Below, in pieces: positions 4,566 to 59,503 of a stretch of 64,000 nucleotides of DNA. The notes beneath the pieces are model-generated. The model ran no database searches, had not been told where the DNA came from, and saw only the letters and a list, made by a program, of their open reading frames with translations. The position numbers and the translations under genes were made by a program. Source of the stretch: Paenibacillus sp. Soil750 (GTDB taxonomy: Bacteria; Bacillota; Bacilli; Paenibacillales; NBRC-103111); NCBI RefSeq assembly GCF_001428045.1, contig NZ_LMSD01000012.1:758735-822734 (forward strand), written 5' to 3'. How positions within the stretch are numbered: position 1 is the stretch's first letter; each line of letters begins with the position of its first letter.

Positions 4566-6056
4566 CTAAAGAGTTCGCCTATAATCACTAGGATTGCATC
4601 CATACTGGTCAGTAAACAGCTTTGCAAAGTAACGCGGATTTGAATATCCGACCATTTCTGCAACTTTCTGAACTTGTACATGAGGGTCTTTCAATAATTC
4701 TTGAGACTTCTTCAATCGGATATTGGTCAAATATTTAATAAACGTTGTTCCCATTTTCTTATGAAATATTGTGCTTAAGTAGTTTGGCGTTACCTTCAGC
4801 TCATCTGCGATTTGTAGGATACTAATCTCATTCATATAGCTCTTCTCAATGAAAAGAAGCGTTTGCTGGACGGTATCCTGAGGCCTCTGCATTTTAGGAA
4901 TATGTACAGATAGAAGAAGTTGACCATGCTCTTTCAGTTGTTTGATCCATACGTCAGCAGTTTCTTTGACATCCAAACGGCAACCGATGGTCGAGCTCAA
5001 GTATTGACTGATCATGCTTTTTACCTTTCTATGCTGCTGATCGTGACACATCTTTTCAAACCGTTCTCTACATTCACTAATTGCATTAATATACAGTGCA
5101 TAAGAGCTTTCCTCGTAATGCTTGACCAGCTTCTCTACACATTTACATAGTTGTAAATGCTCTTCATCGGTGCCCTTCACCCAGTCTTGCAAATGCCATC
5201 TTCGATTCATCCCATAGCCGATCCGCATAACAGATACACGCTGCAAACCATCCAACTGCTCCTTCACACCTGAATAGGAGTGACATTGTGCTGTCAGCAT
5301 AGTTAAACAAAATTCATTACCGATTACAGCCTCCTGCATCACCTGTTCCATATCTAGTGCGACTTTACCCATTAAGCGAGTGATATTCGGCTCATTACTC
5401 TCAGTAATCAAAGCCAATTCACCACTAGGTAGAAAAATAAAGGAATATCGAATTTTCGAATGTCCTTGCAGCCTGCTCCCGATTCGCTCCCGCATCTGTT
5501 TATAAAAAGAGCTCAACCTGCTGGATTTCAATGATTCTTCCAAGCCACTATCCACGTAAAATACGAACAAATGAAAATCCGTAATTTTCTGCTCAGCCGA
5601 ATCTTCTAACCCATCATCCACGACTAGCCCATGGCAAATATCTGTCATCCTTGACCCAAACTTCACGTTCATTCCATCGTTCTGTGTAAGCAAAGCAAGT
5701 TCAATATCGGAAAGTGATAAAGCTAACTCTGCCTGATCTACAGGTTTTAACAAGTAATTGGAAGCTCCAAGCCGAATGGCATCTTGTGCAAATGAGAATT
5801 CCGAGTATCCCGTCAACACGATCCATTTCATCTTCGGATACTCGTTTCTGATTAATTGAATAGCCTCAATGCCAGATAAATAAGGCATCTTAATATCCAC
5901 AATAGCCAAATCAGGCTGCTCATTCCGGATGAGCTCCATCATTTCTCTGCCGTCCGATGCAGTTCCAACAATGTTCCATGTCTGTGAAAGCTCCGAAATC
6001 ATGCTAATGAGACTTTCTTGAATCAGATATTCATCATCCGCAATAACAATCCTCAT
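4566..6056 (-). CDS. YesN-type response regulator, AraC family (locus A)
   Basis: The 496-residue protein has a receiver domain at about 1-120 with acidic residues D7/D8, the phospho-acceptor D54 in V-D-I-K-M-P and conserved Lys in L-L-K-P. A long linker of little known function follows. Residues about 395-496 form an AraC-type double helix-turn-helix, with the second helix pair at V-A-E-M-V-G-Y. Its ATG overlaps the kinase stop by 4 bases (ATGA), so the two are translationally coupled. It should be phosphorylated by the kinase at 6053-7813 and activate the promoters at 9207, 12545 and 14994, which share one architecture; that target assignment is inference from proximity. Confidence 0.9.
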   Translation of the reverse strand: MRIVIADDEYLIQESLISMISELSQTWNIVGTASDGREMMELIRNEQPDLAIVDIKMPYLSGIEAIQLIRNEYPKMKWIVLTGYSEFSFAQDAIRLGASNYLLKPVDQAELALSLSDIELALLTQNDGMNVKFGSRMTDICHGLVVDDGLEDSAEQKITDFHLFVFYVDSGLEESLKSSRLSSFYKQMRERIGSRLQGHSKIRYSFIFLPSGELALITESNEPNITRLMGKVALDMEQVMQEAVIGNEFCLTMLTAQCHSYSGVKEQLDGLQRVSVMRIGYGMNRRWHLQDWVKGTDEEHLQLCKCVEKLVKHYEESSYALYINAISECRERFEKMCHDQQHRKVKSMISQYLSSTIGCRLDVKETADVWIKQLKEHGQLLLSVHIPKMQRPQDTVQQTLLFIEKSYMNEISILQIADELKVTPNYLSTIFHKKMGTTFIKYLTNIRLKKSQELLKDPHVQVQKVAEMVGYSNPRYFAKLFTDQYGCNPSDYRRTL

Positions 6057-7813
6057 GCTGTCATCTCCTTTAATGGGATTTGAAGGGTTGCTTGAGTACC
6101 AACATCCTGCTCACTGTGAATGGCGAATGTTGCCTGTTGATAGACCAGTTGTAGACGTTCTTGCACGTTGTCTAAGCCAACGTGTGTCCCTGAATGAGGC
6201 TCTTTCGAAAAACCTGCGCCATCATCCTTTACCACAATAACCACATAGGCAATATCATTCTCTATGTGCATTGAAGCTGATACTACTAGCGAACAAGCGC
6301 GATTTATGGGTTCAATGCCATGTAGGATTGAATTCTCAACAAGTGGCTGCAGTAGCAACTTCGGGAACAATAAATTCCCTAATGCGGGGTCTAATTCCAT
6401 CGAAAAATCAAACCCTTTTCGGGAAAACCTCATCTTTTGCAAGTTACAGTAACTGACTAGGAAGTCAAACTCATCTTTTAATGTCGATTGATCCTTCTTA
6501 TCCAGGACATAACGAAGCATTCGACTGAGCGAAACAATATACCGCTCCAATAAATCCTTTTGTCCCAAACGATTCAGACCGATAAAGCCACTTAATACAT
6601 TATATAAAAAGTGGGGCTGCAACTGTGCCTGTAGAGATCGATACTCTGCATTTCGTAGATTTAATTCGGTATTACGTAGGGTTAACTGCGCTCGATATTC
6701 TCTATCTATGAGCTCATTAAGATGTGAAATCATCGAGTTAAGCGCCATCCCTATTTGTGCGATCTCATCTTTTCCGTGGACGTCCATTTGTGCGTCTATG
6801 TTTCCTCTTTGAACTCTTTTCATTAAAGCAACCATGTTCTTAAATGGCCGTATAATCCATCGAGAAAGAGAGAAGAACATAATAATTGTTGTGAGTAACC
6901 CGCCAATTCCAAAGGCTAAGCCAAGAATATACACCCATTTAAATTGTGCTTGTATACCCGAATTGGAGATGAATATAACTATATTCCAATGGGCTAACTC
7001 CAAATTTTTCTTAATGACGAAATACGAATCATTATTGCCTTTTACCTTCGTTACATCCTCTTTAATTCCATCCAAAATTTCCGTGGATAAAGGTGAAGTC
7101 GCATAAAGTGGTTGGTTTTGGTCATCTAAAATGGCAATGATCGATTTGGGATTCAAATGCATATCCCCAATAATTTTTTTCATAACATTCGTATCGGCAT
7201 CTGCCATTATTACCCCAACATGTGCTTCCGTGTCGGGATCCTTAATCAACCTGGCTACCGAAAAAACGTTAGTTACCGGCGGATTGCGCAAATAATCCTG
7301 TGCATGGGGACTAATGAATACGACTTGACCGTCGCCTGCCAGTGTTTTCTTGTACCAATCTTTAGTGGTATAGGGGTATTGATCGACCGTTTCTGTTGAA
7401 TTCACCATTCTGGCATACATAGTATCATCATTAGCAATAATCATCGTTCCAACGATATCTTCTCGCGTCATTTTCATGTAGGTAAAAAGCGTATTATACA
7501 GAGCTCGATTGGAGACTAACGTCGTATACAGGTCTGAGGAGGCATAGCTTGGACTTGCTTTTAGCTTCAAAGCATTCATGACGTCTTCACTTAAATAGGG
7601 GATGATTGTCAATTTCTCGAGGTCCGTTAAATACATTTCCATATTACGTTTCATGGAGACTAACGCACTGTCCGTTTCTGTCAATGCGTTTCGGACAATG
7701 ATTTGTTTATAATAGTAAGGCATAACAATCGTAATAAGCAGGGTAGGAATAATAATCGTCAGTAAAAATAGAATAGACAACTTTACCCGAAATGAGTATG
7801 CAAATTTCATCAA
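6053..7813 (-). CDS. YesM-type sensor histidine kinase (locus A)
   Basis: The 586-residue membrane kinase has a first transmembrane helix at about 12-33, an extracellular dCache-like sensor of about 255 residues, a second transmembrane helix at about 292-314, then HAMP (about 315-367). The phospho-acceptor His is H401 in Q-P-H-F-L-Y-N, the signature of the LytS/YesM family. The HATPase domain carries L-V-E-N-S-I-L-H-G (N box) and D-D-G-A-G. It lies 19 bases behind the second binding-protein gene and overlaps the response regulator by 4 bases. The upstream gene encodes a lipoprotein SBP closely related to the transporter SBP, so the kinase may read SBP occupancy rather than free sugar (inference). 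Confidence 0.9.
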   Translation of the reverse strand: MMKFAYSFRVKLSILFLLTIIIPTLLITIVMPYYYKQIIVRNALTETDSALVSMKRNMEMYLTDLEKLTIIPYLSEDVMNALKLKASPSYASSDLYTTLVSNRALYNTLFTYMKMTREDIVGTMIIANDDTMYARMVNSTETVDQYPYTTKDWYKKTLAGDGQVVFISPHAQDYLRNPPVTNVFSVARLIKDPDTEAHVGVIMADADTNVMKKIIGDMHLNPKSIIAILDDQNQPLYATSPLSTEILDGIKEDVTKVKGNNDSYFVIKKNLELAHWNIVIFISNSGIQAQFKWVYILGLAFGIGGLLTTIIMFFSLSRWIIRPFKNMVALMKRVQRGNIDAQMDVHGKDEIAQIGMALNSMISHLNELIDREYRAQLTLRNTELNLRNAEYRSLQAQLQPHFLYNVLSGFIGLNRLGQKDLLERYIVSLSRMLRYVLDKKDQSTLKDEFDFLVSYCNLQKMRFSRKGFDFSMELDPALGNLLFPKLLLQPLVENSILHGIEPINRACSLVVSASMHIENDIAYVVIVVKDDGAGFSKEPHSGTHVGLDNVQERLQLVYQQATFAIHSEQDVGTQATLQIPLKEMTA

Positions 7814-7832: not shown

Positions 7833-9146
7833 TTACCTTCTCGCTAATCGGGTTACATTCTCTTTCATAATCGTACTAAATTCAGCTGCTGTTATATGCC
7901 CAGCAATCAGATCAAGTCCGTTTGTACACATGATATCCCACATGCCGTTCGGCAAATAAACCCGGTCAAAGTAAGGGAAAACACGCACATCCCTATATTG
8001 CTCATAATACTTAGCAAATTCATGATTAACTGTAACGCCTTTCAAACCGACCGGCAGCTTCATTACTTTAGCTATTTTCGCCAAATTATCTGGCTGCGCG
8101 TAGAAGGCAAGCAATTTCTTAGCTTCTGTCATATGCTTCGTATTTTTCCATATCCCCATGGTATCGCGCTCTCCACCTGAGAAGGTTGGCGTATCCCCCG
8201 CGACGATCGAAGGAATCGGCATTATCCCAATTTGAGCGTCTTTGTTCACCTTATACGTGTCCTCAGCGAAATTGGGCCCACCATCAAAGAAAGCTATTTT
8301 ATCTGTGGCAAAGAGCTTTGCAAGATCCGCGAACTTCGCTGTAATGATGTCCTTATTGATGTAACCCCTATCAAACATTTCTTTAAACTTCTCGGCCATC
8401 GGTGTCCACTTGGACCAATCAAAGCTGCCGTTCATCAAAGCGTTAGCTTCATTGTTTTTTGATGAAATTAGTTGTGGAATGGCAAATAAATCAAAGTGCT
8501 CCCCGACGGTCCAATTATCAGCTCCAGAGAAATAAAACGGAACAACTTCGCCTTTGCTTTCAGTGAGGATTTTCTCGGAAGCTGCCATTAATTCATCGAA
8601 GGTTTTGGGCACCTCAATGTTATATTTTTTGAGAACATTCACATTATACGAAATCCCATCTTTGGCTTCACTGATAGGTAGCACATACACCTTACCCTGC
8701 TTATCTGTCACGATATCACGAATACTATCCGATAACTGGGAAGCCCAGCTCTCATTCCTTAAATCTGTCAAATACTTGCCATACCGAATTTGAGCCCAAC
8801 CATGGGTATCAAACACATCTGGTAGATCACTCGCAGCCATTTTCACTTTCAATAGGCTCTCATATTCGGCAGGAAACTGGATATCAACCTTAATCGCTGG
8901 ATTAGCCCGTTCGAAATCTAATGCAATAGCTTTGTAAATATTTTGTCCCGCAGGGGTTGCGACATTCATCAGAACGGATAGTGTAACAATATTACCCACA
9001 TTTGCTCCCGTCTTGGTTGAATCCACCAAAGCACCTGCAAGTTGTGAAGAGTTGGCATCCTTCGTTATGCTGCTTGAGCACCCCAGTAAGAATATTGAAA
9101 GAGCAGTCGTACATGTCAATATAGCTAGCGCGGCTTTGGTAAACAT
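7833..9146 (-). CDS. Second sugar-binding lipoprotein (SBP2) linked to the kinase, locus A
   Basis: This 437-residue family-1 extracellular solute-binding protein has a lipobox L-L-G-C near residue 23. It is the same length as, and by eye roughly three-quarters identical to, the transporter SBP at 11166-12479; the stretch from D-L-P-D-V-F-D to Y-G-K-Y is unchanged and most differences are conservative. It is not in the permease transcript: a strong terminator (9288-9331) and its own promoter (9207-9249) separate them, and it is co-transcribed with the kinase and regulator instead. This placement suggests a sensory role with the kinase, as in the XylFII-LytS systems of clostridia, rather than transport. 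A backup transport SBP is the alternative. Confidence 0.85.
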   Translation of the reverse strand: MFTKAALAILTCTTALSIFLLGCSSSITKDANSSQLAGALVDSTKTGANVGNIVTLSVLMNVATPAGQNIYKAIALDFERANPAIKVDIQFPAEYESLLKVKMAASDLPDVFDTHGWAQIRYGKYLTDLRNESWASQLSDSIRDIVTDKQGKVYVLPISEAKDGISYNVNVLKKYNIEVPKTFDELMAASEKILTESKGEVVPFYFSGADNWTVGEHFDLFAIPQLISSKNNEANALMNGSFDWSKWTPMAEKFKEMFDRGYINKDIITAKFADLAKLFATDKIAFFDGGPNFAEDTYKVNKDAQIGIMPIPSIVAGDTPTFSGGERDTMGIWKNTKHMTEAKKLLAFYAQPDNLAKIAKVMKLPVGLKGVTVNHEFAKYYEQYRDVRVFPYFDRVYLPNGMWDIMCTNGLDLIAGHITAAEFSTIMKENVTRLARR

Positions 9147-9249: not shown

Positions 9250-9287
9250 AATTCTTGTCTACTTTTCTACTCCACCCTTTCCAACGT

Positions 9288-9331
9288 AAAAGGAACCCAG
9301 ATAAGACATAAAAGTCCACCGGGTTCCTTTT
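9288..9331 (-). terminator. Intrinsic terminator after the locus A permeases
   Basis: AAAAGGAACCC (9288-9298) pairs with GGGTTCCTTTT (9321-9331) in a perfect 11-bp stem. It lies 17 bases past the permease stop. On the minus strand the 3' arm runs into TTTTACG. It separates transport genes from the sensory unit. Confidence 0.85.
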
Positions 9332-9347
9332 TATACCGAAGAGTTAA

Positions 9348-10163
9348 TTATCCTTTTACCGCACCAGCGGATAACCCATGAATAAAATACCGTTGCAAGA
9401 ACAAGTACAGCACCGCAAGTGGCAATGCCGCAATTACGGAACCAGCAGCCACCCAGCCTACGTTGCTCGTATACTGACCGAAAAAGGCTGAAAGCGCAAC
9501 AGTGAATGGTCGAATGGCCGTTTTTTGCAGAAAAAATGTTGAGAATTGATAATCGTTCCACACATTTACCCCGTTTAGAATAATGACCGTTGCCGTTACT
9601 GGCTTTAGTAGTGGGACGATTAATTTGAAAATAACTCCGAGCCTAGTCGAACCGTCCATCATAGCCGCTTCATCTAATTCACGTGGAATGGAGCTGATAA
9701 ATCCGGTATACAGAAAGATTGTAATTGGTAGATAGAACGTCACATGCAGCAGAATGATCCCCCAATAGGTGTTTAAAGCTCCAAGATCAACGTAAAATTT
9801 GTAGAGGGGTACTAGAATTGTAAGTGGCGGAACAATCAGAGCTGCGATAAAAAAGAGATACATCATCCGATTCAAGCGTGTCTTGTATCGCGCCAACGGA
9901 TACGACGATATTGTACCTAAGACAATAAGTAAAATAATGACTATAACCGTGATCACACTCGTGTTAATGAAGGCTTTACCCAGCTTCGCATTCACCCACG
10001 CATTCGTGAAATTCCCTGTGTACAAATAGTGGGGAATGCTCCACTTCGAACTGAGGTCTGAATCCTTTTTAAACGAGCTGGTTAGCAAGATATAGAAAGG
10101 CAAGATGTGAAGAATGCCAATGATCAGTACAAGGATGCTCATCCAACCTTTTGCCTGCTTCAT
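9348..10163 (-). CDS. CUT1 sugar ABC transporter permease (MalG type), locus A
   Basis: The 271-residue protein has six predicted membrane helices, beginning at W-M-S-I-L-V-L-I-I-G, and the permease EAA loop E-L-D-E-A-A-M-M-D-G near residue 168, which docks the ATPase. Length and order (SBP, MalF-type, MalG-type) are typical of the family. Its ATG overlaps the upstream permease stop by 4 bases. No ATPase gene lies nearby, so a shared MsmX-type ATPase elsewhere is expected to power it. Confidence 0.92.
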   Translation of the reverse strand: MKQAKGWMSILVLIIGILHILPFYILLTSSFKKDSDLSSKWSIPHYLYTGNFTNAWVNAKLGKAFINTSVITVIVIILLIVLGTISSYPLARYKTRLNRMMYLFFIAALIVPPLTILVPLYKFYVDLGALNTYWGIILLHVTFYLPITIFLYTGFISSIPRELDEAAMMDGSTRLGVIFKLIVPLLKPVTATVIILNGVNVWNDYQFSTFFLQKTAIRPFTVALSAFFGQYTSNVGWVAAGSVIAALPLAVLYLFLQRYFIHGLSAGAVKG

Positions 10164-11089
10164 AGTTCCTGCTCCCTTCTTCTCAGATAATACAAGACAC
10201 TCAAACAGATGACAGAGATGAGGACAAACATTAAGATTCCTAGTGCTGAAGCGAACCCTGCGTCTTGTCTTGTGAAATATAATTTATACATCAGTGTAGA
10301 TAAGGAAGCTGACGCAACCCCTGGCCCACTGTTGGTTAACGAAACGATTACATCGTAAAGCTTCAAGCCCCCGATGAGATTTAAAACAACACTGATCGTC
10401 ATCGAAGGTGAGAGTAATGGGATCGTGACATGTTTAAATTTAGAAAAAGCAGAAGCGCCATCAATATCAGCAGCCTCATAATAGTCTTTGGGAATGGTTT
10501 GAAGTCCAGCCAAATAAATAATCATTGCGACTCCGAGATACTGATACGTATTCACAAAGGTAATAATCCACACGTTAATCTTGGAGTCTGCCAACAAATT
10601 AAATGTCTTGGGTGAGAAAATATGAATAATGTCGTTAATCGCACCGCCATTGTATTGGAAGAAAAAGTACCAGACATATCCCATGATTAACGGGCTAATA
10701 ATAACTGGCATGTACACAATGGTTTTGGCAATGCCTGCTGTACGCATTTTGTAGTTAAGTAAGAGTGCATAAGCTAGACCGACACTATTCTGAAAAATTG
10801 TTGAGCCTACGCCATAAATAAACGTATTTCTGACGACTGTCCAGATATCTGCTTCCTTGAACATCCTCACATAATTATCAATTCCAATCCAAGTGGCATC
10901 CTGAGAGAAGCCGTCCCAATCTGTTAAGGAAATTTTCACCCCATTGATCAAAGGGTATATAACAAAAGCGAGGAGCAGTATCACCGTCGGCAGATACAGG
11001 AAATTAAGCCAAACAGGCGAACTTAACGATTTCCCCCACTTTCTCGGGGCTGCAACGGGTTCTGATCTCTTTTTATAAACAGTATCCAA
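10160..11089 (-). CDS. CUT1 sugar ABC transporter permease (MalF type), locus A
   Basis: I place the start at TTG 11089, giving 309 residues, because GGGAGGTAA (complement of 11094-11102) lies 7 bases upstream; the longer open frame from 11191 overlaps the SBP gene and has no RBS. The protein starts M-D-T-V-Y-K-K-R-S, has six membrane helices and the EAA loop Y-Y-E-A-A-D-I-D-G. It forms the membrane channel with the 9348-10163 permease. It follows its SBP in one transcript. Confidence 0.88.
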   Translation of the reverse strand: MDTVYKKRSEPVAAPRKWGKSLSSPVWLNFLYLPTVILLLAFVIYPLINGVKISLTDWDGFSQDATWIGIDNYVRMFKEADIWTVVRNTFIYGVGSTIFQNSVGLAYALLLNYKMRTAGIAKTIVYMPVIISPLIMGYVWYFFFQYNGGAINDIIHIFSPKTFNLLADSKINVWIITFVNTYQYLGVAMIIYLAGLQTIPKDYYEAADIDGASAFSKFKHVTIPLLSPSMTISVVLNLIGGLKLYDVIVSLTNSGPGVASASLSTLMYKLYFTRQDAGFASALGILMFVLISVICLSVLYYLRRREQEL

Positions 11090-11165
11090 TGGCTTACCTC
11101 CCATCTCTAGATGAATGAAGATTCCCATACCACTTGGGTCGTGATATGGGAACCCGTCATTGATG

Positions 11166-12479
11166 TTATTTTTTCGATAATCGAGCCACATTCTCTTTCA
11201 TGATCTGACTATATTTCTCTGCTGTAATGTGTCCTGTAATTAAATCAAGACCACTCGTACACATTACATCCCACATCCCGTTCGGCAAATATACACGGTC
11301 GAAGTAAGGGAATACACGAATGTCTTTATATTGCTCATAGTAGACTGCGAATTCGTGCGTAGCTGTAACACCCTTCAAACCTGCCGGAAGCTTCATAACA
11401 TTGGAAATTTTCGCTAAGTTCTCAGGTTTCGCAAAAAACGCAAGCAATTTCTTCGCTTCATCCATATGCTTCGTGTCTTTCCAAATCCCCATCGTGTCGC
11501 GTTCTCCACCAGAGAAATTCGGTGTATCTCCCGCAACGATTGAAGGAACTGGCATAATACCGATTTTGACATCCTTGTTCACTTTATACGCATCGTCAGC
11601 GAATGAAGGACCACCGTCAAAGAAAGCAACCTTATCTTGAGCGAATAGTTTAGCAAGATCTGAAAACTTCGCTGTCACGACATCTTTGTTCATATACCCT
11701 TTATCGTACATCTCTTTGAACTTCGTTGGCAGCGGTGTCCATTTGGACCAGTCGAAGCTACCATCCAATAAAGCACTTGCTGAATTGTCCTTCGGCGAAA
11801 TGAGTTGCGGGATAGCAAACAAGTCAAAATGCTCGCCCACCGTCCAATTGTCAGCACCCGCAAAGTAAAACGGAACAACCTCGCCTTTACTTTCAGTTTT
11901 GATCTTTTCAGAAGCTGCCATTAATTCATCAAAGGTTTTGGGCACCTCGATATTATATTTCTTAAGTACGTTCACATTGTAGGAAATCCCATCTTTGGCT
12001 TCACTAATCGGAAGCGCATACACTTTGCCTTGTTTGTCTGTTACGACATCTTTAATCGTATCCGTCAATTGTGATGCCCAACTCTCGCCTTTCAAATCAG
12101 CCAAATATTTGCCATAGCGAATTTGCGCCCATCCATGTGTATCGAACACGTCCGGCAGATCACTTGCAGCCATTTTCACTTTCAACAAGTTCTCGTATTC
12201 ACCTGGGAATTGTAAATCAACTTTAATTGTCGGGTTTGCTTTCTCAAAATCTGCTGCAACCACTTTATACGCTTCTTGTCCTGCTGGTTGTGCCACGTTC
12301 ATTAGAACGGATAATGTAACCTTATCCCCTGACTTTGTCTCTACTTTCGCTGGAGCAGCTGTAGTGCTTACAGATGGTGACGGATCTGCTTCTTTCGTAG
12401 TTGTGTTCGAACATCCAACCATCGCTAAGGATACGATTGATGTGCAAGCTAAAACAGTAAACACAGATTTCTTAAACAT
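11166..12479 (-). CDS. Sugar-binding lipoprotein (SBP1) of the locus A transporter
   Basis: This 437-residue family-1 solute-binding protein has a signal peptide and lipobox M-V-G-C near residue 23, a Ser/Thr/Pro-rich tether, and the bilobal fold (K-V-T-L-S-V-L-M-N-V first strand). It should hold an oligosaccharide outside the membrane and deliver it to the two permeases. The start has RBS AGGAGGGGTTACC. It is the first gene of the transport unit, directly behind the promoter at 12545-12587. A close paralogue lies at 7833-9146. Confidence 0.93.
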   Translation of the reverse strand: MFKKSVFTVLACTSIVSLAMVGCSNTTTKEADPSPSVSTTAAPAKVETKSGDKVTLSVLMNVAQPAGQEAYKVVAADFEKANPTIKVDLQFPGEYENLLKVKMAASDLPDVFDTHGWAQIRYGKYLADLKGESWASQLTDTIKDVVTDKQGKVYALPISEAKDGISYNVNVLKKYNIEVPKTFDELMAASEKIKTESKGEVVPFYFAGADNWTVGEHFDLFAIPQLISPKDNSASALLDGSFDWSKWTPLPTKFKEMYDKGYMNKDVVTAKFSDLAKLFAQDKVAFFDGGPSFADDAYKVNKDVKIGIMPVPSIVAGDTPNFSGGERDTMGIWKDTKHMDEAKKLLAFFAKPENLAKISNVMKLPAGLKGVTATHEFAVYYEQYKDIRVFPYFDRVYLPNGMWDVMCTSGLDLITGHITAEKYSQIMKENVARLSKK

Positions 12480-22041: not shown

Positions 22042-22079
22042 GGTACCCTCCTGACGGAAACGGATACAATTCTTGTCCG

Positions 22080-23459: not shown

Positions 23460-24290
23460 TTACGCTTTTACAGCACCTGCCGTCAAACCACTTTGTACCC
23501 GGTTGGAGAAAATTAAATACAGCAGCACCACGGGCAGTGTAGCGATCGAAAGCGCAAGGATCTTAGCACCATTGTCCTGATAATATAAGGAATTGAAAGA
23601 GTTGATACCGAGCGGCACCGTAAACATCCGGCTGTCGTTGATAGTGACCAAAGGCACGAAGAAGGAATTCCAGGACCAGACGAAATTGAGCAGCCCTAAA
23701 GTAATGAGTGCAGGTGTAATCATGGGAGTCACGATGCTAAAAAAAATCCGAAATTCTCCTGCCGAGTCGATTCTGGCGCTCTCCAGCACCTCCATCGGAA
23801 CGATATCCTTGATATATTGAGTTATCCAAAACACGCCAAATCCTGCAAATACATAGGGCAAGATAGCAGGAATAAGCGTGTCATTCAAGTGGAAGAGCTT
23901 CATTTCGTATACGTAAGCGACAATACTCAGTTGAGAGGGGACCATCATAGAGAACAATACAATATTGTAGAACAACTTGTTCCCTTTGAATGGGAACTTC
24001 GCAAAACCATAGCCGCATAGCGCCGAGGTCAACAGGGAAAAGATGACGCTGGACATCGACATCAACATGCTGTTCTTCATGAAAGTCGGAAACGACGTTT
24101 TCGAAATCGTCACGAAGTTTTGCAAGATATAGTTGGATGGGAGACCATTAAAGCTAAACATCTGAAAGCTGTCGTAAGTTCCCATAACGATCATGGCGTA
24201 GAAGGGGGCCAACGAGACAACGGTCAATACAGCGACAATCGAATAGAACAAAGTCCCTCCCGCAAAATGTGTTTTGCTGCCTGAATTCAT
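23460..24290 (-). CDS. CUT1 sugar ABC transporter permease (MalG type), locus B
   Basis: The 276-residue protein has six membrane helices and an EAA loop (L-E-S-A-R-I-D-S-A-G) in which the usual second Ala and the Gly are partly changed, as often seen in MalG-type partners. It overlaps the MalF-type permease by 4 bases. The C-terminus S-G-L-T-A-G-A-V-K-A is typical of the family. Confidence 0.92.
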   Translation of the reverse strand: MNSGSKTHFAGGTLFYSIVAVLTVVSLAPFYAMIVMGTYDSFQMFSFNGLPSNYILQNFVTISKTSFPTFMKNSMLMSMSSVIFSLLTSALCGYGFAKFPFKGNKLFYNIVLFSMMVPSQLSIVAYVYEMKLFHLNDTLIPAILPYVFAGFGVFWITQYIKDIVPMEVLESARIDSAGEFRIFFSIVTPMITPALITLGLLNFVWSWNSFFVPLVTINDSRMFTVPLGINSFNSLYYQDNGAKILALSIATLPVVLLYLIFSNRVQSGLTAGAVKA

Positions 24291-26677: not shown

Positions 26678-26801
26678 TACCCCCTCATAGTGAAGACCGG
26701 GATCAATGCATTTAGCATTCATTCCGTCTATGAGTAAAGTATACGGATTCAATCTCGCTCCTTGAATACGATATCTTTCGAGTTTCCTTCGAAATCTTCA
26801 G
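26628..26801 (-). repeat. SBP promoter and 5' coding segment, copy 2 (probable source)
   Basis: This is the counterpart of 18394-18567 and includes the promoter and the first 16 or so codons of the SBP. Because the SBP codons are functional here and a relic there, this copy is the likely donor. Confidence 0.88.
26738..26766 (-). promoter_or_regulatory. Promoter of the locus B SBP-permease unit
   Basis: On the minus strand -35 TTCAAG (26766-26761) and -10 TATACT (26743-26738) are 17 bases apart. The sequence TATACTTTACTCA is shared with the promoters at 18504 and 14994. Confidence 0.75.
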
Positions 26802-51519: not shown

Positions 51520-51533
51520 TGAATGTAACCTCC

Positions 51534-52517: not shown

Positions 52518-54194
52518 TTATTTCTTCGCAGCGTCCCAATCGTTTACTTCTTTCGTGATTTGTGTTAATCCAAGCTTATTAAGATTTTCTACGAATGCAT
52601 CAAAATGATCAATTGACTCTGCACCCATGATAACTTTTGTAAAGAATTCCATCTCTGTTTTCTTGATCGTATCCATCCGACTCTTCATCGTATCCGTTGG
52701 AGATCCATAGAAATTGTCTAGAAGGAACAGATTATTTTTGTCGTATTCATTCATGATTCTGAACGAACCCGTTTCACCGAATACTTTTTCGAACTGTGCT
52801 TGCGTGTTGTCGCCGCCTTGATATTTTTTAATATTGTCATAATATGTTTTCTCTTCACTATTCAATTTAGCGGCATCACCTGATTTCATTGCGTTCGTAA
52901 CATTCAGATGCGCTGACAAATTTTTCTTAGCTGCCCACTCTTGGAAAATTGTCGGATGTTGTCCAGGGCCTTTCGGTCCAAAAAATTTATCATATAATTG
53001 TACATCCGGTCCGCGATTTACTTCTACAAAGTAATTTAACAACTTCACTAACGCTTCTGGATTCTTAAAATTTTTATTAACAACATAATATCCACGTACA
53101 TTTAGCTTGATCTGAGGCTTAGCTGGCTGGCTGTTATTTGAAACAAGTCCATATGAGAGCCAGTTGGAGTCTTTGAAATTATCCTTCGTTTGTTGAAGTG
53201 GATACATAGCGTTCCACATTGCACCATATTCGATGCCAACTCTGCCGCTTGCTGCCAGTTCTGTCGCTTTTGCTGAATCCTTAGCGCCGAAATCCGCCTC
53301 AATAAGGCCTTCCTTGTACAGTTTGTTCAAGTATATGAGTGCTTCTTTCATCTGTGGTTGAACACTACCATAAGCTAGCTTCCCTGAGCTATCTTTTAAC
53401 CAAATACGAGGATAAGCCTGGAAGCCATTAAATATACCTAATGCTTCACCAACGCCTGGATCAAGGAAGTCCTTATTTAGCATTAAACCATACGTATCTG
53501 CTTTACCATTGCCGTCCGGATCTTTCTCTTTAAACGCTTTCATCACATTATAAAGTTCATCCAATGACTTAGGGACTTTAAGTTGCAGTTTGTCCAGCCA
53601 GTCTTGCCGCATCCATAAGAATGATGCTGTATCAATAGACGAATCTACTTGTGGAATAGCCAAGACCTTACCACCAAATGTTGCCGAATCCCATGGTGCT
53701 TGACCTGATTCAGCCACGGTATCCTTCGTTAGTTTTGAAGCATACTTATCATACACATCTTTGAGATCTGTTCGAATTAAATTCGTTTTAGACAATAATG
53801 CTAATTGCTCAATGTTGACTGTCATAATATCAGGAATATTTCCAGAAGCGATGGCAACACTCTTCTTTTGAGAACATAAATCAGTCCCTGAACAAAACCA
53901 TGTTGCATTCAGGTCGATACCATACTTATCCCGATAATCTTTATTCCATGGATTATTGGGCCAATCGGCTTCCTTAAAATCCTTTGCCATAGCATCGTTA
54001 ATTTGAAAATCGATTGAAACTTTCAGTGGTGGATCATACTTCGCGTTAGGATCTGCAGAAGTTGCAGGTGTAGTTGCAGATGCAGTTGCTGCAGGTGTTG
54101 CACTATTTGTAGCACTATCTTTTTTCTCGCCACATGCAGCCATAATTCCGGTACTTAAAATAACTGTGCTAAGTACTAATAAACTTTTCTTCAC
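52518..54194 (-). CDS. LplA-type oligosaccharide-binding lipoprotein (SBP1), locus F
   Basis: I place the start at GTG 54194 (GGGGGAA, 6-base gap), giving 558 residues; the open frame to 54269 has no RBS. It begins M-K-K-S-L-L-V-L-S, with lipobox M-A-A-C near residue 21 and a Ser/Thr/Ala/Pro tether. It is a large LplA-type SBP and a clear paralogue of the next gene: shared blocks include P-W-N-K/L-W-N-K, N-I-E-Q-L-A-L-L-S-K and F-Y-G-S-P-T-(D/E)-T-M-K-S. It belongs with the two permeases downstream. Confidence 0.9.
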   Translation of the reverse strand: MKKSLLVLSTVILSTGIMAACGEKKDSATNSATPAATASATTPATSADPNAKYDPPLKVSIDFQINDAMAKDFKEADWPNNPWNKDYRDKYGIDLNATWFCSGTDLCSQKKSVAIASGNIPDIMTVNIEQLALLSKTNLIRTDLKDVYDKYASKLTKDTVAESGQAPWDSATFGGKVLAIPQVDSSIDTASFLWMRQDWLDKLQLKVPKSLDELYNVMKAFKEKDPDGNGKADTYGLMLNKDFLDPGVGEALGIFNGFQAYPRIWLKDSSGKLAYGSVQPQMKEALIYLNKLYKEGLIEADFGAKDSAKATELAASGRVGIEYGAMWNAMYPLQQTKDNFKDSNWLSYGLVSNNSQPAKPQIKLNVRGYYVVNKNFKNPEALVKLLNYFVEVNRGPDVQLYDKFFGPKGPGQHPTIFQEWAAKKNLSAHLNVTNAMKSGDAAKLNSEEKTYYDNIKKYQGGDNTQAQFEKVFGETGSFRIMNEYDKNNLFLLDNFYGSPTDTMKSRMDTIKKTEMEFFTKVIMGAESIDHFDAFVENLNKLGLTQITKEVNDWDAAKK

Positions 54195-54255
54195 TGTCTG
54201 TTCCCCCAATATGAGTGATTTGTTTACATTCTTAATGATAGAACATGACAAATAC

Positions 54256-54289
54256 GTAAGCGATATCACGTTATTGACATCGCTTACAC
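54256..54289 (-). promoter_or_regulatory. Inverted pair of cre-like operators upstream of SBP1, locus F
   Basis: GTAAGCGAT (54256-54264) and ATCGCTTAC (54279-54287) form a 9-bp inverted repeat with a 14-base gap. Each arm lies in a cre-like site; on the minus strand TGTAAGCGATGTCAAT (54288-54273) fits the consensus core fully. CcpA repression of the SBP1-permease unit is likely. Confidence 0.7.
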
Positions 54290-54333
54290 TTTGTTGACTT
54301 CTTAAATTTACACATTTCCGTTAAAGCAAAGAA

Positions 54334-54369
54334 AGAGAAACAGAGAGCATGTTTGCTCTCTGTTTCTCT
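54334..54369 (-). terminator. Strong hairpin between SBP2 and SBP1, locus F
   Basis: A perfect 16-bp stem (54334-54349 with 54354-54369) around a 4-base loop begins 18 bases past the SBP2 stop. On the minus strand TTCTTTGCTTT follows, an interrupted T-tract. It may end most SBP2 transcripts and so separate the sensory unit from the transport unit. Confidence 0.7.
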
Positions 54370-54387
54370 CTATTAAATCCATAATTT

Positions 54388-56085
54388 CTACTTATTGTTA
54401 TTCCATTCATTAACTTCTTTCGTTATTTGCAGCAGTCCTATTTTATTCAATTCCTGTATGAATACATCGAAGTTATCAACTGATTCAACTCCCATAATAA
54501 CTTTTGTATAGTATTCCATTTCTTTGTCACTAATAATTTTCATTTTTGATTTCATCGTCTCGGTTGGAGAGCCATAAAATCTATCCATCATAAATAGATT
54601 TTTGTCATAATACATTTTCATTGCATTATAGGAACCTGTTACCCCAAAAACTTTTTCATATTGAGCCATACTGTTATCTCCAGCCTTGTATTTAAGAATG
54701 TTCTCAAAGTATCCTTTTTGCTCCGGAGTCAACTTGGATACCTCACCCGTTTTCAACGCGTTTACTACATTTTCGTGTGCTTGTAGATTCTTCTTCGTAG
54801 GCCATGCGCGGAAAGGCATGTAATGAAGGCCAGGGTTTTTTAATGGGTCTGTAACCCCATCCCTAACATTATAAAATTTATTATACTCATCCATATTTTC
54901 GCCAAAAGATTTTTCAGTGAAAAGATTTAGAAGTTTAATCAAAGCTTCTGGATGTCCGAATCCTTTCTTCACAACGATATAATTTTCGTTGTTTAAATTA
55001 ATTTTTGCTTTTGCAGGTTGATCATCACTTGAGAGAATGCCCAATCCCCTCCAATCAGAATCCGGGAAATTATCTTTCGTTTTCTGCAACGGCGTCATTG
55101 CGTTCCACATAGCACCAAATTCCACGCCTGATCGATTTGCTGCAGCGGCATCCGTAGCCCTCTGCCAGTCCTTGGCTGCAAAATCCTTTTCAATCAAACC
55201 TTCTCTATATAACGTTTGGAGATAAGTCAGTGCTTTCTTCATTTCTGGCAGCGTGCTGCCGTAGACCAAATGCCCTGATGAATCATTAATCCAGGTTTGC
55301 GGATAAGCATGGAATCCGTTAAAAATTCCGATAGCTTCAGCTACGCCTTGTTGTAAGAAATCTTTACTCAGCATAAGTCCGACAGGTTTGCCTGTTTTAC
55401 CTAAGTCTGCTTTTACGAATGCTTTTATCACTTCATGCAATTCATTTAAATTCTTCGGCTCTTGAAGGTTTAATTGTATCAGCCAATCTTTGCGTATCCA
55501 CATGAAGGAAGCAGCATCACCTGAAGAGTTCGTCATGGGAATGGCAGTGAGCTTGCCATCGGACATTGCCGCTTGAAAAGCTGAATTGCCTTCCTGTTTC
55601 ATGATACTTTTTGTCAATTGGGACGCATATTGATCATAGATAGGCCCAAGATCTTTATTAATCAACTCCGCTTTGGACAGTAAAGCCAGCTGCTCAATAT
55701 TAACGTTAAAAATATCCGGTAGGTCACCCGAAGCAATATCTATTGAAACTTTTTGCAATGATTGCTCAGTAGAGCGAGTAATCCATTTATACACAAGGTT
55801 AATACCTAATTCGTCTTTCATTGCCTTGTTCCATAAATTATTCTTCAAACCTAAATCTGAATATTGTTCCTTTATTGCCACATTGACTTCAAAGATTGTT
55901 TTTATAGTAATTGGCGGATCATATTTTGCCATTATATCTGTATTCGGTTTCAAATTGGTGTCGGCGTTTGTAGTATTGGTTGGTAAACTTGTAGCTTCTT
56001 CACCACTGTTCGAGCAAGCGACGATGAAAATTAGTAAAAAAGCAGCAATTGTTGGACAAACAAACATACTCTTAAATTTAGTCAT
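54388..56085 (-). CDS. LplA-type binding lipoprotein paralogue (SBP2), locus F
   Basis: The 565-residue protein has lipobox I-V-A-C near residue 24 and a Thr/Asn-rich tether. It is a paralogue of SBP1 along the whole length (blocks I-E-Q-L-A-L-L-S-K, K-D-N-F-x-D-S-D/N-W and M-K-S-x-M). It lies directly behind the response regulator, with a strong hairpin and a cre pair between it and SBP1. As in loci A and B the extra SBP is grouped with the kinase/regulator, here downstream of them. A co-receptor role is inferred. Confidence 0.87.
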   Translation of the reverse strand: MTKFKSMFVCPTIAAFLLIFIVACSNSGEEATSLPTNTTNADTNLKPNTDIMAKYDPPITIKTIFEVNVAIKEQYSDLGLKNNLWNKAMKDELGINLVYKWITRSTEQSLQKVSIDIASGDLPDIFNVNIEQLALLSKAELINKDLGPIYDQYASQLTKSIMKQEGNSAFQAAMSDGKLTAIPMTNSSGDAASFMWIRKDWLIQLNLQEPKNLNELHEVIKAFVKADLGKTGKPVGLMLSKDFLQQGVAEAIGIFNGFHAYPQTWINDSSGHLVYGSTLPEMKKALTYLQTLYREGLIEKDFAAKDWQRATDAAAANRSGVEFGAMWNAMTPLQKTKDNFPDSDWRGLGILSSDDQPAKAKINLNNENYIVVKKGFGHPEALIKLLNLFTEKSFGENMDEYNKFYNVRDGVTDPLKNPGLHYMPFRAWPTKKNLQAHENVVNALKTGEVSKLTPEQKGYFENILKYKAGDNSMAQYEKVFGVTGSYNAMKMYYDKNLFMMDRFYGSPTETMKSKMKIISDKEMEYYTKVIMGVESVDNFDVFIQELNKIGLLQITKEVNEWNNNK

Positions 56086-56112: not shown

Positions 56113-57750
56113 CTAAGCGCGGTTCCTGTATTCTTGTGGGGTTATACCGACCACTTTTTTAAAAAATCTGCTAAAATAGCCTGCAGTGGTAAAACCTAAT
56201 TGGCTCGCGACTTCCTGAATTTGAAGAGCAGGGTTTTTAAGGTTTTCTTTAGCAGAATGAATTTTAAGATTTGTAATGTAATCCGATAACGTCATTCCCT
56301 CCGTTTGTTTAAACAGCCGCGACAAATATTCAGGCGTTAAATAGATCTGTTCAGCAAGATGAATAAGAGTCAGATCGCCATCCAAATGTTTATTAATATA
56401 TTGTTTCACCTGGTATATCGCCCTTTCCTTTTCCTTCCCCATCTGTTCTCTGTTTAACTCAAACAGGAAAATTGTCATCTCCTTCGCATAATCCCAAACA
56501 GCCTCCCATTTGCCTTGTAAAAACAGTTCTTGCCATCTTGTTAGCAATGACAAATGTACACTTCGATCTCTCTCTTCCAAATTCGTATATAACGAACTAA
56601 AACCTAGCCCCAGCAGATAAAAGAGTTCAAAGACAAATGTGTTATCCTTTTCAATCGGTCCATGTAAGGCCTCCTTAAACTCGGCAATCACTCTTAAACA
56701 AGCCTCTTGCTGTCTTGTCTCCAAATGATTTTGTAATTGCCCAGCCTTTTTGATTAAGACATGTCCCTCGATCGCATCAGATAAGTTCTGATGATTTAGT
56801 GATCCCCAGTGATCGTTTGCATCCGTTAATATCATTCCCCTCTCACCGTAAAACTGCATCAATAACAGCTTTAAAAAAGAAAAGTGTTGAGGTAGTTCAT
56901 CTATTAGCGATGATTTGTTAAGCCAAGCAACTGACAGCGGAGCTCTCCATGACATCTGAGCAGTTTTCAACAATGTTTCTAGCGTACCACCAACAAATGA
57001 ACATGCACGCTCCCAACTCAGGTTCATCTGAGTTTTCGGTTGAAGCAGAACAATAATATAGGACGGGCTGTATATACTGCTCACAACTTCAGTCAATGAG
57101 CCTAGAAGCATATGAGCTACATTTTGAATTGAAACAAATTGGTTATTTATTTCCGTTCTTGACATACCTTCAGCATCATCCATACGAATCAATACAAGAA
57201 TAAAGGGTTGATTGACAGATAAACAAATAGAAAGTTCCTTGAACTGTTGTTGATTAATATCACTCACTTTGAGTGAACCTTCCATCAAATCAGTGATGTA
57301 CAACGTTCTCATGTGCTCAATATGCATTTTATAATAAATATCCGCTTTATCGGTTAGCGTTTCCATGAGTAAGTCAGTTTCAACGTCTTTAATGGCAAGT
57401 GAGACATTTTCCAGAATTAGTGAATCGCCATCTGCTTTTAACACATACCGCACATCCGAATATTGAATTGCCTGATAAACATAATCAAATTCATTATGTC
57501 CCGTAAGAAAAATCACTTTACAGCGCGGCCAACGCATTTTAATTTGATCTAGTAATTGAAGGCCTGACATTTGTGGCATTCGAATGTCAGTAAGCACAAT
57601 GTCCATACGGATACGCTCTAAAATTGCTATCGCCTCAAAAGCGGATGATGCCTTAAATATTGTAAGCTCCAGTTGCTCATTTTCAGTGAACAACTCAACT
57701 AAACCTTCTAGAATATAAGGCTCGTCATCAACAATCAGCAATTTATGCAT
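56113..57750 (-). CDS. YesN-type response regulator, AraC family (locus F)
   Basis: The start is ATG 57750 (GGAGG, 9-base gap), giving 545 residues; the longer frame to 57798 lies within the kinase gene. Receiver domain with D8/D9 and acceptor D55 in L-T-D-I-R-M-P. The switch position reads Y-V-L-K-A-D, as in related regulators without Pro. The DNA-binding domain covers about 440-545 (I-Y-L-T-P-E-Y-L-S-R-L-F-K, F-K-K-V-V-G-I-T-P). It overlaps the kinase by 8 bases. Confidence 0.9.
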   Translation of the reverse strand: MHKLLIVDDEPYILEGLVELFTENEQLELTIFKASSAFEAIAILERIRMDIVLTDIRMPQMSGLQLLDQIKMRWPRCKVIFLTGHNEFDYVYQAIQYSDVRYVLKADGDSLILENVSLAIKDVETDLLMETLTDKADIYYKMHIEHMRTLYITDLMEGSLKVSDINQQQFKELSICLSVNQPFILVLIRMDDAEGMSRTEINNQFVSIQNVAHMLLGSLTEVVSSIYSPSYIIVLLQPKTQMNLSWERACSFVGGTLETLLKTAQMSWRAPLSVAWLNKSSLIDELPQHFSFLKLLLMQFYGERGMILTDANDHWGSLNHQNLSDAIEGHVLIKKAGQLQNHLETRQQEACLRVIAEFKEALHGPIEKDNTFVFELFYLLGLGFSSLYTNLEERDRSVHLSLLTRWQELFLQGKWEAVWDYAKEMTIFLFELNREQMGKEKERAIYQVKQYINKHLDGDLTLIHLAEQIYLTPEYLSRLFKQTEGMTLSDYITNLKIHSAKENLKNPALQIQEVASQLGFTTAGYFSRFFKKVVGITPQEYRNRA

Positions 57751-59503
57751 GTGATAAATCCTCCCCCTCAATGATAATACAAATACAAATCCCCCCATAT
57801 CGACGACTTATAGAAGCATTCAATCCACTATTTGGACCAAATACAGATTTGAGTCTCCGGTCGACATTGCGAATAGCTGTTGTTTCCTTATCAAAAGAAT
57901 CATCGGTATTCAGGCATGCATGAATGCGTGCCAAATTATCTTCTGCACGATCCCCATTATCTTCAACGCATATTCTAAGTTGTTGATCGTTCAGTTCAAT
58001 AGTAACAGACAAAACACCTTTATCCAGCTTGTCCTCCATCCCATGTATATAAGCATTCTCAATCAACGGTTGAATAATGAGTCGGGGGACCAGTCTAGGC
58101 TTGAAGCGTTCAGGTACTTCTCCAAAAATGAGTGTCACTCGGTTGTTAAAACGTGTTTGTTGGATATTTGCATAATTTTTAGCGTGTTGAACCTCATTTT
58201 CCAGAATAACCATATCACTTGAGTTTTTAGTGACAAATCTGAAATATTGAGCCAATTGGTCAACAAAAATAACTGCTTCTTCCAGTTTCTCTAATTTGAT
58301 CATTCGAACAACGATAAAAAGACTGTTATACAGAAAATGAGGATTAATTTGAGATTGCAGTTGCTTTAATTCTGCAGTCTGAAGCAAGATGGTTTTTCTG
58401 TACTGCTCATCTATTAAATGCCGAAGACTATCCACAGTCCAGTTAAACTGTTCATACAGGTATCTGTACTCATCCTGATGGTTATGATGTATGACCGTTT
58501 CCAGATTCCCCTCTTCCACCCGTTTAAACGCACGTACCATTTGAAGCAGCGGGCGGTGAATCGTATTATTGTTGTAAGCAAGAAAAAAACAAATAGCGAC
58601 GAACGTCAATACTGTAAAAATCCAGAACCAAATGGCTCTTCTATGCACTTGCTTGAAAATTACATCTTTTGGAATAAACTGTTGGAGTAGCAGCTTGTTA
58701 TCTTTAGATGCGGCAACCTGAATGACCATGTAAGACTTCCCTGAAATATTTCTTTCTTCTGAAAGTTGTAATTGATTAGAATTACCTTCACTCTCTGATT
58801 TTAGAAATGGTTCAAATTGATTCTCTCCATTACTATCATAAGTAAACTGATATTGATCACCTATTCTTAGAATCACAATTCCACTATATGTTCTAATATT
58901 CGACTGAACTAAGTCATTTTCAATTTCAGGAATCGATAATTCTATTTCTAAAATTACGGTTGGTGTCTCTTTCATTGGATCAATTGTTATTGGAGATAGA
59001 TCTGAAATGGTCATATAAAGCTTCCCACTGCTATACACAATTTGGGATGGGTGCTTTAAATTCTTCTCATTTATCATTTGGGTGTCAAATTCGCCTAGTC
59101 CAGTCACCGCGGATAACGCTATGTTTTCTTTAGGTGCATATAATTTTATATCTTCCACAATGGGACTCATATTTCTGATTGACTGCAGTCTTGACTGAAC
59201 AGAAAGAATTGCCTGTATTCTCGCATATGAATCATGACTATCATAGCCGATAGCAATTTGATTAACGTAACGGTCTGTTAACATTTCAAACTGCATTAAG
59301 GAAATTTTATTAATTGTATTTTCTAAATTTTTAAGGTAATAATCTGATTGTTCCATGGATTGTTCAGTAATGTATTTCTTCATATGTGATATATCCCAAT
59401 AATATAAATAAAGGCTGAACACATAGATAGGTATGATAGCAATAATAAAACTGATGATTAACTTACTAAAAATTGATTTTAGCTGAAATTTTCGATAGCG
59501 AAT
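57743..59503 (-). CDS. YesM-type sensor histidine kinase (locus F), apparent ATT start
   Basis: From ATT 59503 the kinase has 586 residues. The frame from the first canonical ATG candidate (59422) would begin at M-F-S-L-Y, inside the first membrane helix. The upstream codons read I-R-Y-R-K-F-Q-L-K then a clean hydrophobic helix, the normal N-terminus of this family, and AGGAGG lies 8 bases before the ATT with no ATG, GTG or TTG in frame at that point. Two membrane helices, a dCache-like sensor, HAMP, the acceptor I-N-P-H-F-L-Y-N-S and an HATPase domain follow. It starts 20 bases past the GH78 stop. A sequencing error or another rare start (ATC) cannot be excluded. Confidence 0.8.
   Translation of the reverse strand: MRYRKFQLKSIFSKLIISFIIAIIPIYVFSLYLYYWDISHMKKYITEQSMEQSDYYLKNLENTINKISLMQFEMLTDRYVNQIAIGYDSHDSYARIQAILSVQSRLQSIRNMSPIVEDIKLYAPKENIALSAVTGLGEFDTQMINEKNLKHPSQIVYSSGKLYMTISDLSPITIDPMKETPTVILEIELSIPEIENDLVQSNIRTYSGIVILRIGDQYQFTYDSNGENQFEPFLKSESEGNSNQLQLSEERNISGKSYMVIQVAASKDNKLLLQQFIPKDVIFKQVHRRAIWFWIFTVLTFVAICFFLAYNNNTIHRPLLQMVRAFKRVEEGNLETVIHHNHQDEYRYLYEQFNWTVDSLRHLIDEQYRKTILLQTAELKQLQSQINPHFLYNSLFIVVRMIKLEKLEEAVIFVDQLAQYFRFVTKNSSDMVILENEVQHAKNYANIQQTRFNNRVTLIFGEVPERFKPRLVPRLIIQPLIENAYIHGMEDKLDKGVLSVTIELNDQQLRICVEDNGDRAEDNLARIHACLNTDDSFDKETTAIRNVDRRLKSVFGPNSGLNASISRRYGGICICIIIEGEDLSHA

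What the first reader, a model, noticed from the sequence alone, without database searches (positions are those of the whole stretch)
4566..59503. Three loci pair an extra binding protein with a kinase/regulator
In loci A (7833-9146), B (22080-23363) and F (54388-56085) a paralogue of the transporter SBP is encoded beside the YesM/YesN pair; locus E has a kinase/regulator but no extra SBP. In locus A it has its own promoter and is cut off from the permeases by a terminator; in F a strong hairpin separates it. Unrelated SBP families (CUT1 type in A and B, LplA type in F) have reached the same layout, so it looks selected. The XylFII-LytS system is an established precedent for an SBP acting as kinase co-receptor; extension to these families is inference.
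Basis: partly seen in the sequence, partly recalled or inferred. Interest (0 to 1): 0.8.

Follow-up and report, generated by a model that had tools for sequence, protein, structure and literature searches.

The report
Sugar-binding proteins paired with sensor kinases
Three sugar-uptake loci in this Paenibacillus-like genome each carry a second sugar-binding lipoprotein next to a sensor kinase and its regulator, most likely so that the second protein detects the sugar for the kinase while the first one transports it; this kind of three-part sensor is already known, and here it turns out to have arisen repeatedly.

Summary
The genes are there. Loci A and B carry a second sugar-binding protein (SBP2) directly 5' of the kinase; locus F carries one 3' of the regulator, so "the same layout" holds only for A and B. 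Best reading: SBP2 is a dedicated co-receptor of the kinase. This is a known kind of system: CuaDSR (co-receptor binding shown), NagB1-NagS in Paenibacillus (title seen), AraPST/GanPST in Geobacillus; the nearest solved kinase is GanS. Support is uneven. B is strong: SBP1, SBP2, permeases, kinase and regulator occur together in 5 of 5 loci examined, in Paenibacillus and Cohnella. A is moderate: SBP2 is an old in-locus duplicate with three to four times as many private changes as SBP1, but 18 of 21 related kinase matches lack it. F is weak: two near-identical loci. Outside the window the pattern is stronger: one SBP-kinase pair without upstream permeases is kept in 18 of 19 other matches, and an LplA/AlgQ2-type SBP sits with its kinase where permeases are absent. 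Eight of 115 kinases in the genome have such an SBP, on scattered branches. No binding was tested. Side finding: a conserved T9 frameshift in a related kinase gene in three genomes.

The parts
7833..9146 (-). Locus A SBP2, candidate sensor SBP (CUT1/MsmE-like lipoprotein, 437 aa)
   Evidence: SBP_bac_1; 76% to SBP1; lipobox LLGC; nearest solved MsmE 4rk9/4r6h; 19 nt 5' of HK
6053..7813 (-). Locus A sensor kinase (YesM-like, 586 aa)
   Evidence: His_kinase + HAMP; dCache_1 below cut-off
4566..6056 (-). Locus A response regulator (YesN/AraC-like), 4-nt overlap with the kinase
   Evidence: Response_reg + HTH_18
11166..12479 (-). Locus A SBP1, transport SBP
   Evidence: SBP_bac_1; next to permeases
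9348..11191 (-). Locus A two permeases (9348-10163, 10160-11191)
   Evidence: BPD_transp_1
9270..9347 (-). Intergenic hairpin between permeases and SBP2, locus A
   Evidence: z -4.5, 0 of 200 shuffles as stable; not listed by the simple terminator scan
22080..23363 (-). Locus B SBP2, candidate sensor SBP (427 aa), 4-nt overlap with the kinase
   Evidence: SBP_bac_1; kept beside HK in 5 of 5 loci examined
20263..22083 (-). Locus B sensor kinase (606 aa); tandem-Cache sensor, GanS-like kinase core
18619..20229 (-). Locus B response regulator (AraC-like)
   Evidence: Pfam
25322..26752 (-). Locus B SBP1, transport SBP
   Evidence: SBP_bac_1; own clade in tree
23460..25249 (-). Locus B two permeases (23460-24290, 24287-25249)
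   Evidence: ORFs; labelled permease by own-genome profiles
54388..56085 (-). Locus F SBP2 (LplA/AlgQ2-type lipoprotein, 565 aa), 27 nt 3' of the regulator
   Evidence: AlgQ2-like; 51% to SBP1; 96% in G022
56113..57798 (-). Locus F response regulator
   Evidence: Response_reg + HTH_18
57743..59422 (-). Locus F sensor kinase (559 aa), Cache-like sensor in model
52518..54269 (-). Locus F SBP1, transport SBP (LplA type)
   Evidence: best hit of SBP2; next to permeases 50635-52445
54332..54371 (-). 18-bp hairpin with T-rich tail between SBP2 and SBP1, locus F
   Evidence: z -4.4 for 54270-54387
47184..50562 (-). Locus E kinase (48793-50562) and regulator (47184-48800) without an extra SBP: the within-window contrast
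   Evidence: Pfam; SBP 45647-47011 is the single transport SBP

Best explanation
SBP2 is a membrane-anchored, sugar-specific sensor subunit of a three-component system. It binds an oligosaccharide, docks on the extracytoplasmic tandem-Cache domain of the neighbouring YesM-like kinase, and the phosphorylated AraC-type regulator then switches on the transporter and hydrolase genes of the locus. SBP1, encoded with the permeases, does the uptake. The kinase-side SBP arises by duplication of the transport SBP (A, F, and earlier B) or comes from another SBP subfamily. Shown here: gene content, hairpins that separate the units in A and F, homology, co-inheritance (B), asymmetric evolution (A), and repeated occurrence. 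Inferred: ligand binding, docking, signalling, target promoters. My estimates by locus: B 0.8, A 0.7, F 0.5.
For: B: SBP2B relatives form one clade and SBP1B another (100/100); SBP1, SBP2, permeases, HK and RR occur together in all 5 loci examined, although in 2 Cohnella loci HK-RR is divergent from SBP2-SBP1-P-P; SBP2 identities between loci (43-82%) track those of HK (42-84%) and are lower than SBP1's (51-88%). A: the SBP1/SBP2 split postdates the split from G020/G023 (100/99); after it SBP2 took 57 private changes against 14 in SBP1 (chi2 26; 54 against 18 with the other outgroup); dN 0.145 with saturated dS argues for long-term purifying selection, not decay; SBP2A breaks 9 of 113 positions invariant in transport-type relatives, SBP1A 3 of 114. 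Wider: own SBP C44:5831-7126 has a kinase directly 3' in 18 of 19 other matches (gap -55 to 26 nt) with no permease in the 1.5-kb 5' flank; in 3 of 4 such loci seen at length the downstream transporter has an LplA-type SBP, so the sensor SBP is not a duplicate of it. Own LplA-type SBP C6:68347-70041 sits 23-42 nt from its kinase with no permease in the flanks seen in 6 genomes, while 16 relatives have permeases upstream and a 64-171 nt gap to the kinase. SBP distances follow the sensor domain more than the kinase domain in the C44 pairs (partial r 0.74 against 0.14). Precedents: CuaD-CuaS binding; NagB1-NagS by title.
Against: No interaction or ligand was tested. 18 of 21 HK-A family matches have no SBP2 directly 5' in their 1.5-kb flanks, so such kinases need none. 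HK-A's sensor domain shows no clear speed-up where SBP2 appeared (own against G023 with 7 outgroups: chi2 0.1-2.1 in six, 5.3 in one). One transport-type SBP (L134) breaks a larger share of invariant positions (24 of 113) than any sensor-type one, and two others (11 of 122-123) slightly exceed SBP2A, so that measure is weak. The mirror test is not specific: other sets give partial r (sensor/kinase) 0.50/0.55 (C6 family, n 24), 0.53/0.44 (A-type, n 14) and 0.30/0.60 (P-P-L-H, n 18). The own-genome gap difference is p 0.023 with 8 cases but p 0.087 when two single-SBP cases are kept in. The 5 B loci were found through SBP2 itself, and 7 of the 12 SBP2B-like proteins were not seen in context. F is in two near-identical genomes only.
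Confidence: 0.7

Rival explanations
1. SBP2 is a second feeder of the same permeases: it delivers a different oligosaccharide to the shared transporter, and lies beside the kinase only because kinase pairs usually flank transporters.
For: SBP2A is still 76% identical to SBP1A and keeps 104 of 113 transport-invariant positions; in F and in two Cohnella B loci SBP2 lies directly before SBP1-P-P; extra SBPs beside permeases away from the kinase also occur (C1:539141, C8:29824).
Against: Hairpins put SBP2 on the kinase side in A and F, and it overlaps the kinase gene in B; SBP-HK pairs without upstream permeases are conserved; the extra SBP is beside HK-RR in 8 of 10 clusters.
Confidence: 0.17
2. 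One transport SBP does both jobs (as in relatives with a single SBP) and SBP2 only tunes it, for example as a competitor, sugar buffer or antagonist of the kinase.
For: Among 21 HK-A family matches, 13 have permeases directly upstream and 5 a divergent SBP, with no SBP2 in the flanks seen. The CuaDSR authors report that the kinase pair without CuaD still responds to cellobiose (PMC10384115).
Against: In CuaDSR, CuaD improved growth and only CuaD bound CuaS; B keeps both SBPs in 5 of 5 loci examined.
Confidence: 0.08
3. SBP2 mainly serves a chemoreceptor, with the kinase a secondary partner.
For: In two B-type loci (Cohnella CFH 77786, P. sedimenti) a dCache-HAMP-MCP gene sits between the permeases and SBP2.
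Against: No such gene lies between them in the window's B locus or in the two more distant Cohnella loci.
Confidence: 0.03
4. SBP2 is a functionless duplicate on its way out.
For: Fast evolution of SBP2A.
Against: Saturated dS with dN 0.145, intact lipobox and frame in A; retention across genera in B.
Confidence: 0.02

Closest known systems
CuaDSR with CuaABC, Ruminiclostridium cellulolyticum (PMC10384115: Results read, Discussion passages)
   Same: Second SBP gene beside a two-TM HAMP class-I kinase and a YesN/AraC regulator; separate SBP1 with permeases; SBP2 a lipoprotein.
   Different: Sugar known (cellobiose) and binding shown there; here the sugars are unknown and F has the SBP after the regulator.
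NagB1-NagS/NagB2, Paenibacillus sp. FPU-7 (PMC8233162 passages; 2024 NagS title seen only in a reference list)
   Same: Homologous SBPs in Paenibacillus, one beside kinase and regulator, one beside permeases. PDB 8w7p, titled 'Extracellular domain of a sensor histidine kinase', matches the HK-B and HK-F models; that it is NagS is recalled.
   Different: There nagB1 and nagB2 are shown as separate gene contexts (Fig. 1 legend); A, B and F keep both SBPs in one cluster.
AraPST / GanPST, Geobacillus stearothermophilus (Shulami 2011 cited inside PMC10384115; gene details recalled)
   Different: Sequence orthology of the SBPs was not tested.
XylFII-LytS, Clostridium beijerinckii (cited in PMC10384115)
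   Same: A sensor SBP separate from the transport SBP acts through a kinase.
   Different: XylFII is of another SBP class (recalled); SBP2 of A and B match SBP_bac_1.

Membership tests
SBP - class-I kinase - AraC regulator three-component system (CuaDSR/AraPST type) | Lipoprotein SBP gene directly joined to the kinase gene, in order SBP-HK-RR | tested here: met
   Met for A (19 nt) and B (-4 nt). Not met for F, which is HK-RR-SBP2 (27 nt after RR).
SBP - class-I kinase - AraC regulator three-component system (CuaDSR/AraPST type) | Separate transport SBP with permeases in the locus | tested here: met
   SBP1 and permease pair in A, B and F
SBP - class-I kinase - AraC regulator three-component system (CuaDSR/AraPST type) | Kinase with extracytoplasmic sensor, HAMP and His_kinase; receiver-AraC regulator | tested here: met
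   Pfam for A, B, F; models with Cache-like sensors for HK-B and HK-F
SBP - class-I kinase - AraC regulator three-component system (CuaDSR/AraPST type) | SBP2 and kinase inherited together | tested here: inconclusive
   B met, 5 of 5 loci examined. A not met outside the own genome (18 of 21 lack it, 1 fragment). F: own plus one near-identical genome.
SBP - class-I kinase - AraC regulator three-component system (CuaDSR/AraPST type) | SBP2, not SBP1, binds the kinase's extracytoplasmic domain | not testable with these tools
   Only single chains can be folded here
SBP - class-I kinase - AraC regulator three-component system (CuaDSR/AraPST type) | SBP2 binds the inducing sugar; regulator activates the transporter promoter | not testable with these tools
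   Needs binding and reporter assays
XylFII-LytS | SBP of the XylFII class (Peripla_BP-type, recalled) | tested here: not met
   A and B SBP2 match SBP_bac_1; F SBP2 matches AlgQ2-type SBPs

The most novel reading that the evidence does not exclude
In Paenibacillaceae the Cache domain of YesM-type kinases is a general docking platform for SBPs. Lineages repeatedly split one sugar-binding protein into a dedicated sensor and a dedicated transporter, by duplication or by recruiting another subfamily, and this includes LplA/AlgQ2-type SBPs (own C6 triad, perhaps F), for which I found no published kinase co-receptor in my searches. Sensing and uptake specificity could then evolve separately, and in this genome have done so several times.
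Probability: 0.35. Interest if true: 0.6.

Novelty: new member of a known kind. Interest (0 to 1): 0.42.

Why it matters
If right, the inducer of a sugar locus should be sought with the kinase-side SBP rather than the transport SBP, which gives a practical way to find inducers for YesM/YesN pairs of unknown signal (115 kinases of this type in this genome). SBP1/SBP2 pairs such as A (76% identical) and B (ancient split) are natural experiments in how one binding protein is re-aimed from a permease to a kinase. It also warns that an SBP beside a kinase should not be annotated as a transporter part by default.

Tried and rejected
Rejected: F as the same layout as A and B (gene order differs). Rejected as evidence: promoter matches in A (at chance); cre-like sites as proof of a separate promoter (enriched in the window, 142 against 87 expected at up to 2 mismatches, and one lies at 9219-9234 before SBP2A, but they precede several operons). 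HK-A sensor-domain acceleration: tested, not found. SBP-kinase fusions: the two long kinases checked (912 and 929 aa) match dCache_1 below its cut-off and no SBP family; a systematic fusion search was not done. LytS was not among the 50 rows shown in either fold comparison, which excludes nothing. Listings for AraPST/GanPST terms showed no primary paper. The genus holds only 30 genomes, so a request for 200 returned 30. Counts from relatives use 60 genomes, own included; their loci carry 1.5-kb flanks only.

Dropped before counts: in the C6 family 30 of 34 matches had loci; 8 of those 30 (L211, L222, L226-L231) were left out of the gap comparison because of contig ends, rearrangement, a small intervening ORF, no permease seen or no kinase directly 3'; in the C44 family 1 of 19 other matches (L252) is a fragment with a stop. 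In the tree of own kinases 5 of 115 were left out for length. In one search the odd transport SBP L134 was left out before invariant positions were listed; one search keeps it. One search scored only 150 of 211 candidate SBPs, so no genome-wide SBP total is given. Gene calls are mechanical (longest ORFs), so small gaps are approximate.
Full report
What is in the window. The window is G000:C12:758735-822734 of an 8.3 Mb genome with 115 His_kinase (PF06580) matches. Locus A reads SBP1-P-P, hairpin, SBP2-HK-RR; B reads SBP1-P-P-SBP2-HK-RR with a 4-nt SBP2/HK overlap; F reads HK-RR-SBP2, hairpin, SBP1-P-P; E is HK-RR with one ordinary SBP-P-P unit. SBP2 resembles its own SBP1 best in each case (76, 33 and 51%), which fits three separate in-locus duplications of different ages.

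How common it is in this genome. Sixteen of 115 kinases have an SBP as immediate 5' neighbour on the same strand within 350 nt (unlabelled ORFs under 150 aa ignored); 6 of these are the SBP of a P-P-SBP transporter and 10 are not. Two of the 10 (C41:237755, C9:65374) have their permeases downstream and were counted as single-SBP systems, leaving 8 candidates for a dedicated sensor SBP: A, B, C34:351109, C44:8323, C1:674084, C6:71280, C23:644663 and C23:134422. The gap to the kinase is shorter in these 8 than in the 6 transport cases (p 0.023), less clearly with all 10 (p 0.087). On a quick tree of 110 kinases these 8 need 7 changes, 3 at least forced by well-supported branches; they are no more clustered than shuffled labels (77 of 500 as low). 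The association thus arose repeatedly.

Locus A over time. Among 60 genomes (own included) 17 have HK-A family matches, 21 in all. Directly upstream of the kinase: an SBP only in the two own copies (A and C23); a permease in 13; an SBP in divergent orientation in 5; one match is a fragment. The ancestral form is therefore probably S-P-P-H-R with one SBP. The SBP tree puts SBP2A as sister of SBP1A (100/99) after the split from G020 and G023, with branch lengths 0.35 and 0.033; Tajima counts are 57:14 and 54:18. dS is saturated and dN 0.145, so the duplicate is old and constrained. The kinase's sensor domain shows no clear matching acceleration. The second own copy, C23, and three relatives (G008, G010, G027) are SBP-HK without adjacent permeases and form their own SBP clade (96/92; the tree warns of long branches meeting there), a second origin within one SBP family.

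Locus B over time. All 4 have SBP1, permeases, HK and RR next to SBP2; two have an extra MCP chemoreceptor gene between the permeases and SBP2, and two have HK-RR divergent from SBP2-SBP1-P-P. Searching the other way, HK-B has relatives at E <= 1e-85 only in the own genome and G021, both with SBP2. SBP1 and SBP2 are separate clades at 100/100. The family is rare: 12 proteins at E <= 1e-30 among 5.8 billion, of which 5 were seen in context.

Locus F. SBP2F and HK-F have close relatives only in G022 (96 and 98%), with the same gene order. Of 28 other kinase loci shown for HK-F (36% identity or less over most of their length), 13 have a permease directly upstream, 2 an LplA-type SBP, 11 other genes, and 2 are fragments. 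The hairpin that closes the HK-RR-SBP2 unit is strong, but the case rests on position alone.

Stronger cases outside the window. The own SBP at C44 (CUT1 type) is followed by a kinase at -55 to 26 nt in 18 of 19 other matches; none of the 18 has a permease in the 1.5-kb 5' flank, and in 3 of 4 loci seen at length (own, G001, G056, not G021) the downstream transporter carries an LplA-type SBP instead. The own LplA-type SBP at C6 and 5 orthologues (89-95%) sit 23-42 nt before their kinase with no permease in the flanks seen, while 16 relatives at 56-64% have permeases upstream and 64-171 nt gaps (Mann-Whitney p 2e-4, not corrected for relatedness). Keeping SBP and kinase together where permeases are gone is what a sensor pair predicts. 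In the C44 pairs (n 19) SBP distances follow the sensor domain beyond the kinase domain (partial r 0.74, reverse 0.14); other sets give 0.50/0.55 (C6 family, n 24), 0.53/0.44 (A-type, n 14) and 0.30/0.60 (P-P-L-H, n 18).

Mechanism. Steps shown in a relative: the sensor SBP binds the kinase's outer domain, and the strain with the full system grows better on the sugar than the strain with the kinase pair alone (CuaDSR). Steps inferred here: ligand, docking, target promoters. SBP2's faster evolution and the tight kinase-side genes fit release from the permeases and adaptation to the kinase, but relaxed constraint would give the same rate signal.

Novelty. A and B are new members of a known kind. 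The LplA/AlgQ2-type sensor pairs would be a variant; my searches showed none in print, and most subscription papers are not held. Interest is moderate because the principle, including in Paenibacillus, is already published.

Noticed in passing
L254:3252-4972 (G010), also L124 (G008) and L125 (G027): The kinase of an SBP-HK-RR triad related to A/C23 is split into two overlapping ORFs (289 and 299 aa) at a TTTTTTTTT run just before TM2 in all three genomes. Between G010 and G027 dS is about 0.30 and dN/dS 0.093 (5' ORF) and 0.041 (3' ORF), so both halves look to be under purifying selection: possible programmed slippage or a split receptor. G008 and G010 are near-identical, so two lineages at most; none of 120 own kinase genes has an A9/T9 run; no notable RNA structure around it (z -1.2).
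   Followed up: partly
L199:7792-9873 and L200:7624-9708: An MCP chemoreceptor (dCache-HAMP-MCPsignal) sits between the permeases and SBP2 in two B-type loci, so one SBP might serve both a kinase and chemotaxis.
   Followed up: partly
window 9219-9234, 12557-12572, 15006-15021, 18575-18590, 54254-54289: cre-like palindromes lie before several operons, including SBP2A and SBP1F; 142 matches at up to 2 mismatches against 87 expected, 0 of 100 shuffles as many.
   Followed up: no
window 26936-30161, 59524-62175, 36573-43049, 1056-2573: The loci sit among plant-polysaccharide enzymes: a GDSL esterase, GH115, an alpha-L-rhamnosidase, a 2158-aa protein with GH39 and S-layer domains, and GH43.
   Followed up: no
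G000:C12:938152-946193 (own genome): An extra SBP lies directly 3' of a regulator (SBP-P-P-HK-RR-SBP), the only other F-like position among the 10 two-SBP clusters counted.
   Followed up: no
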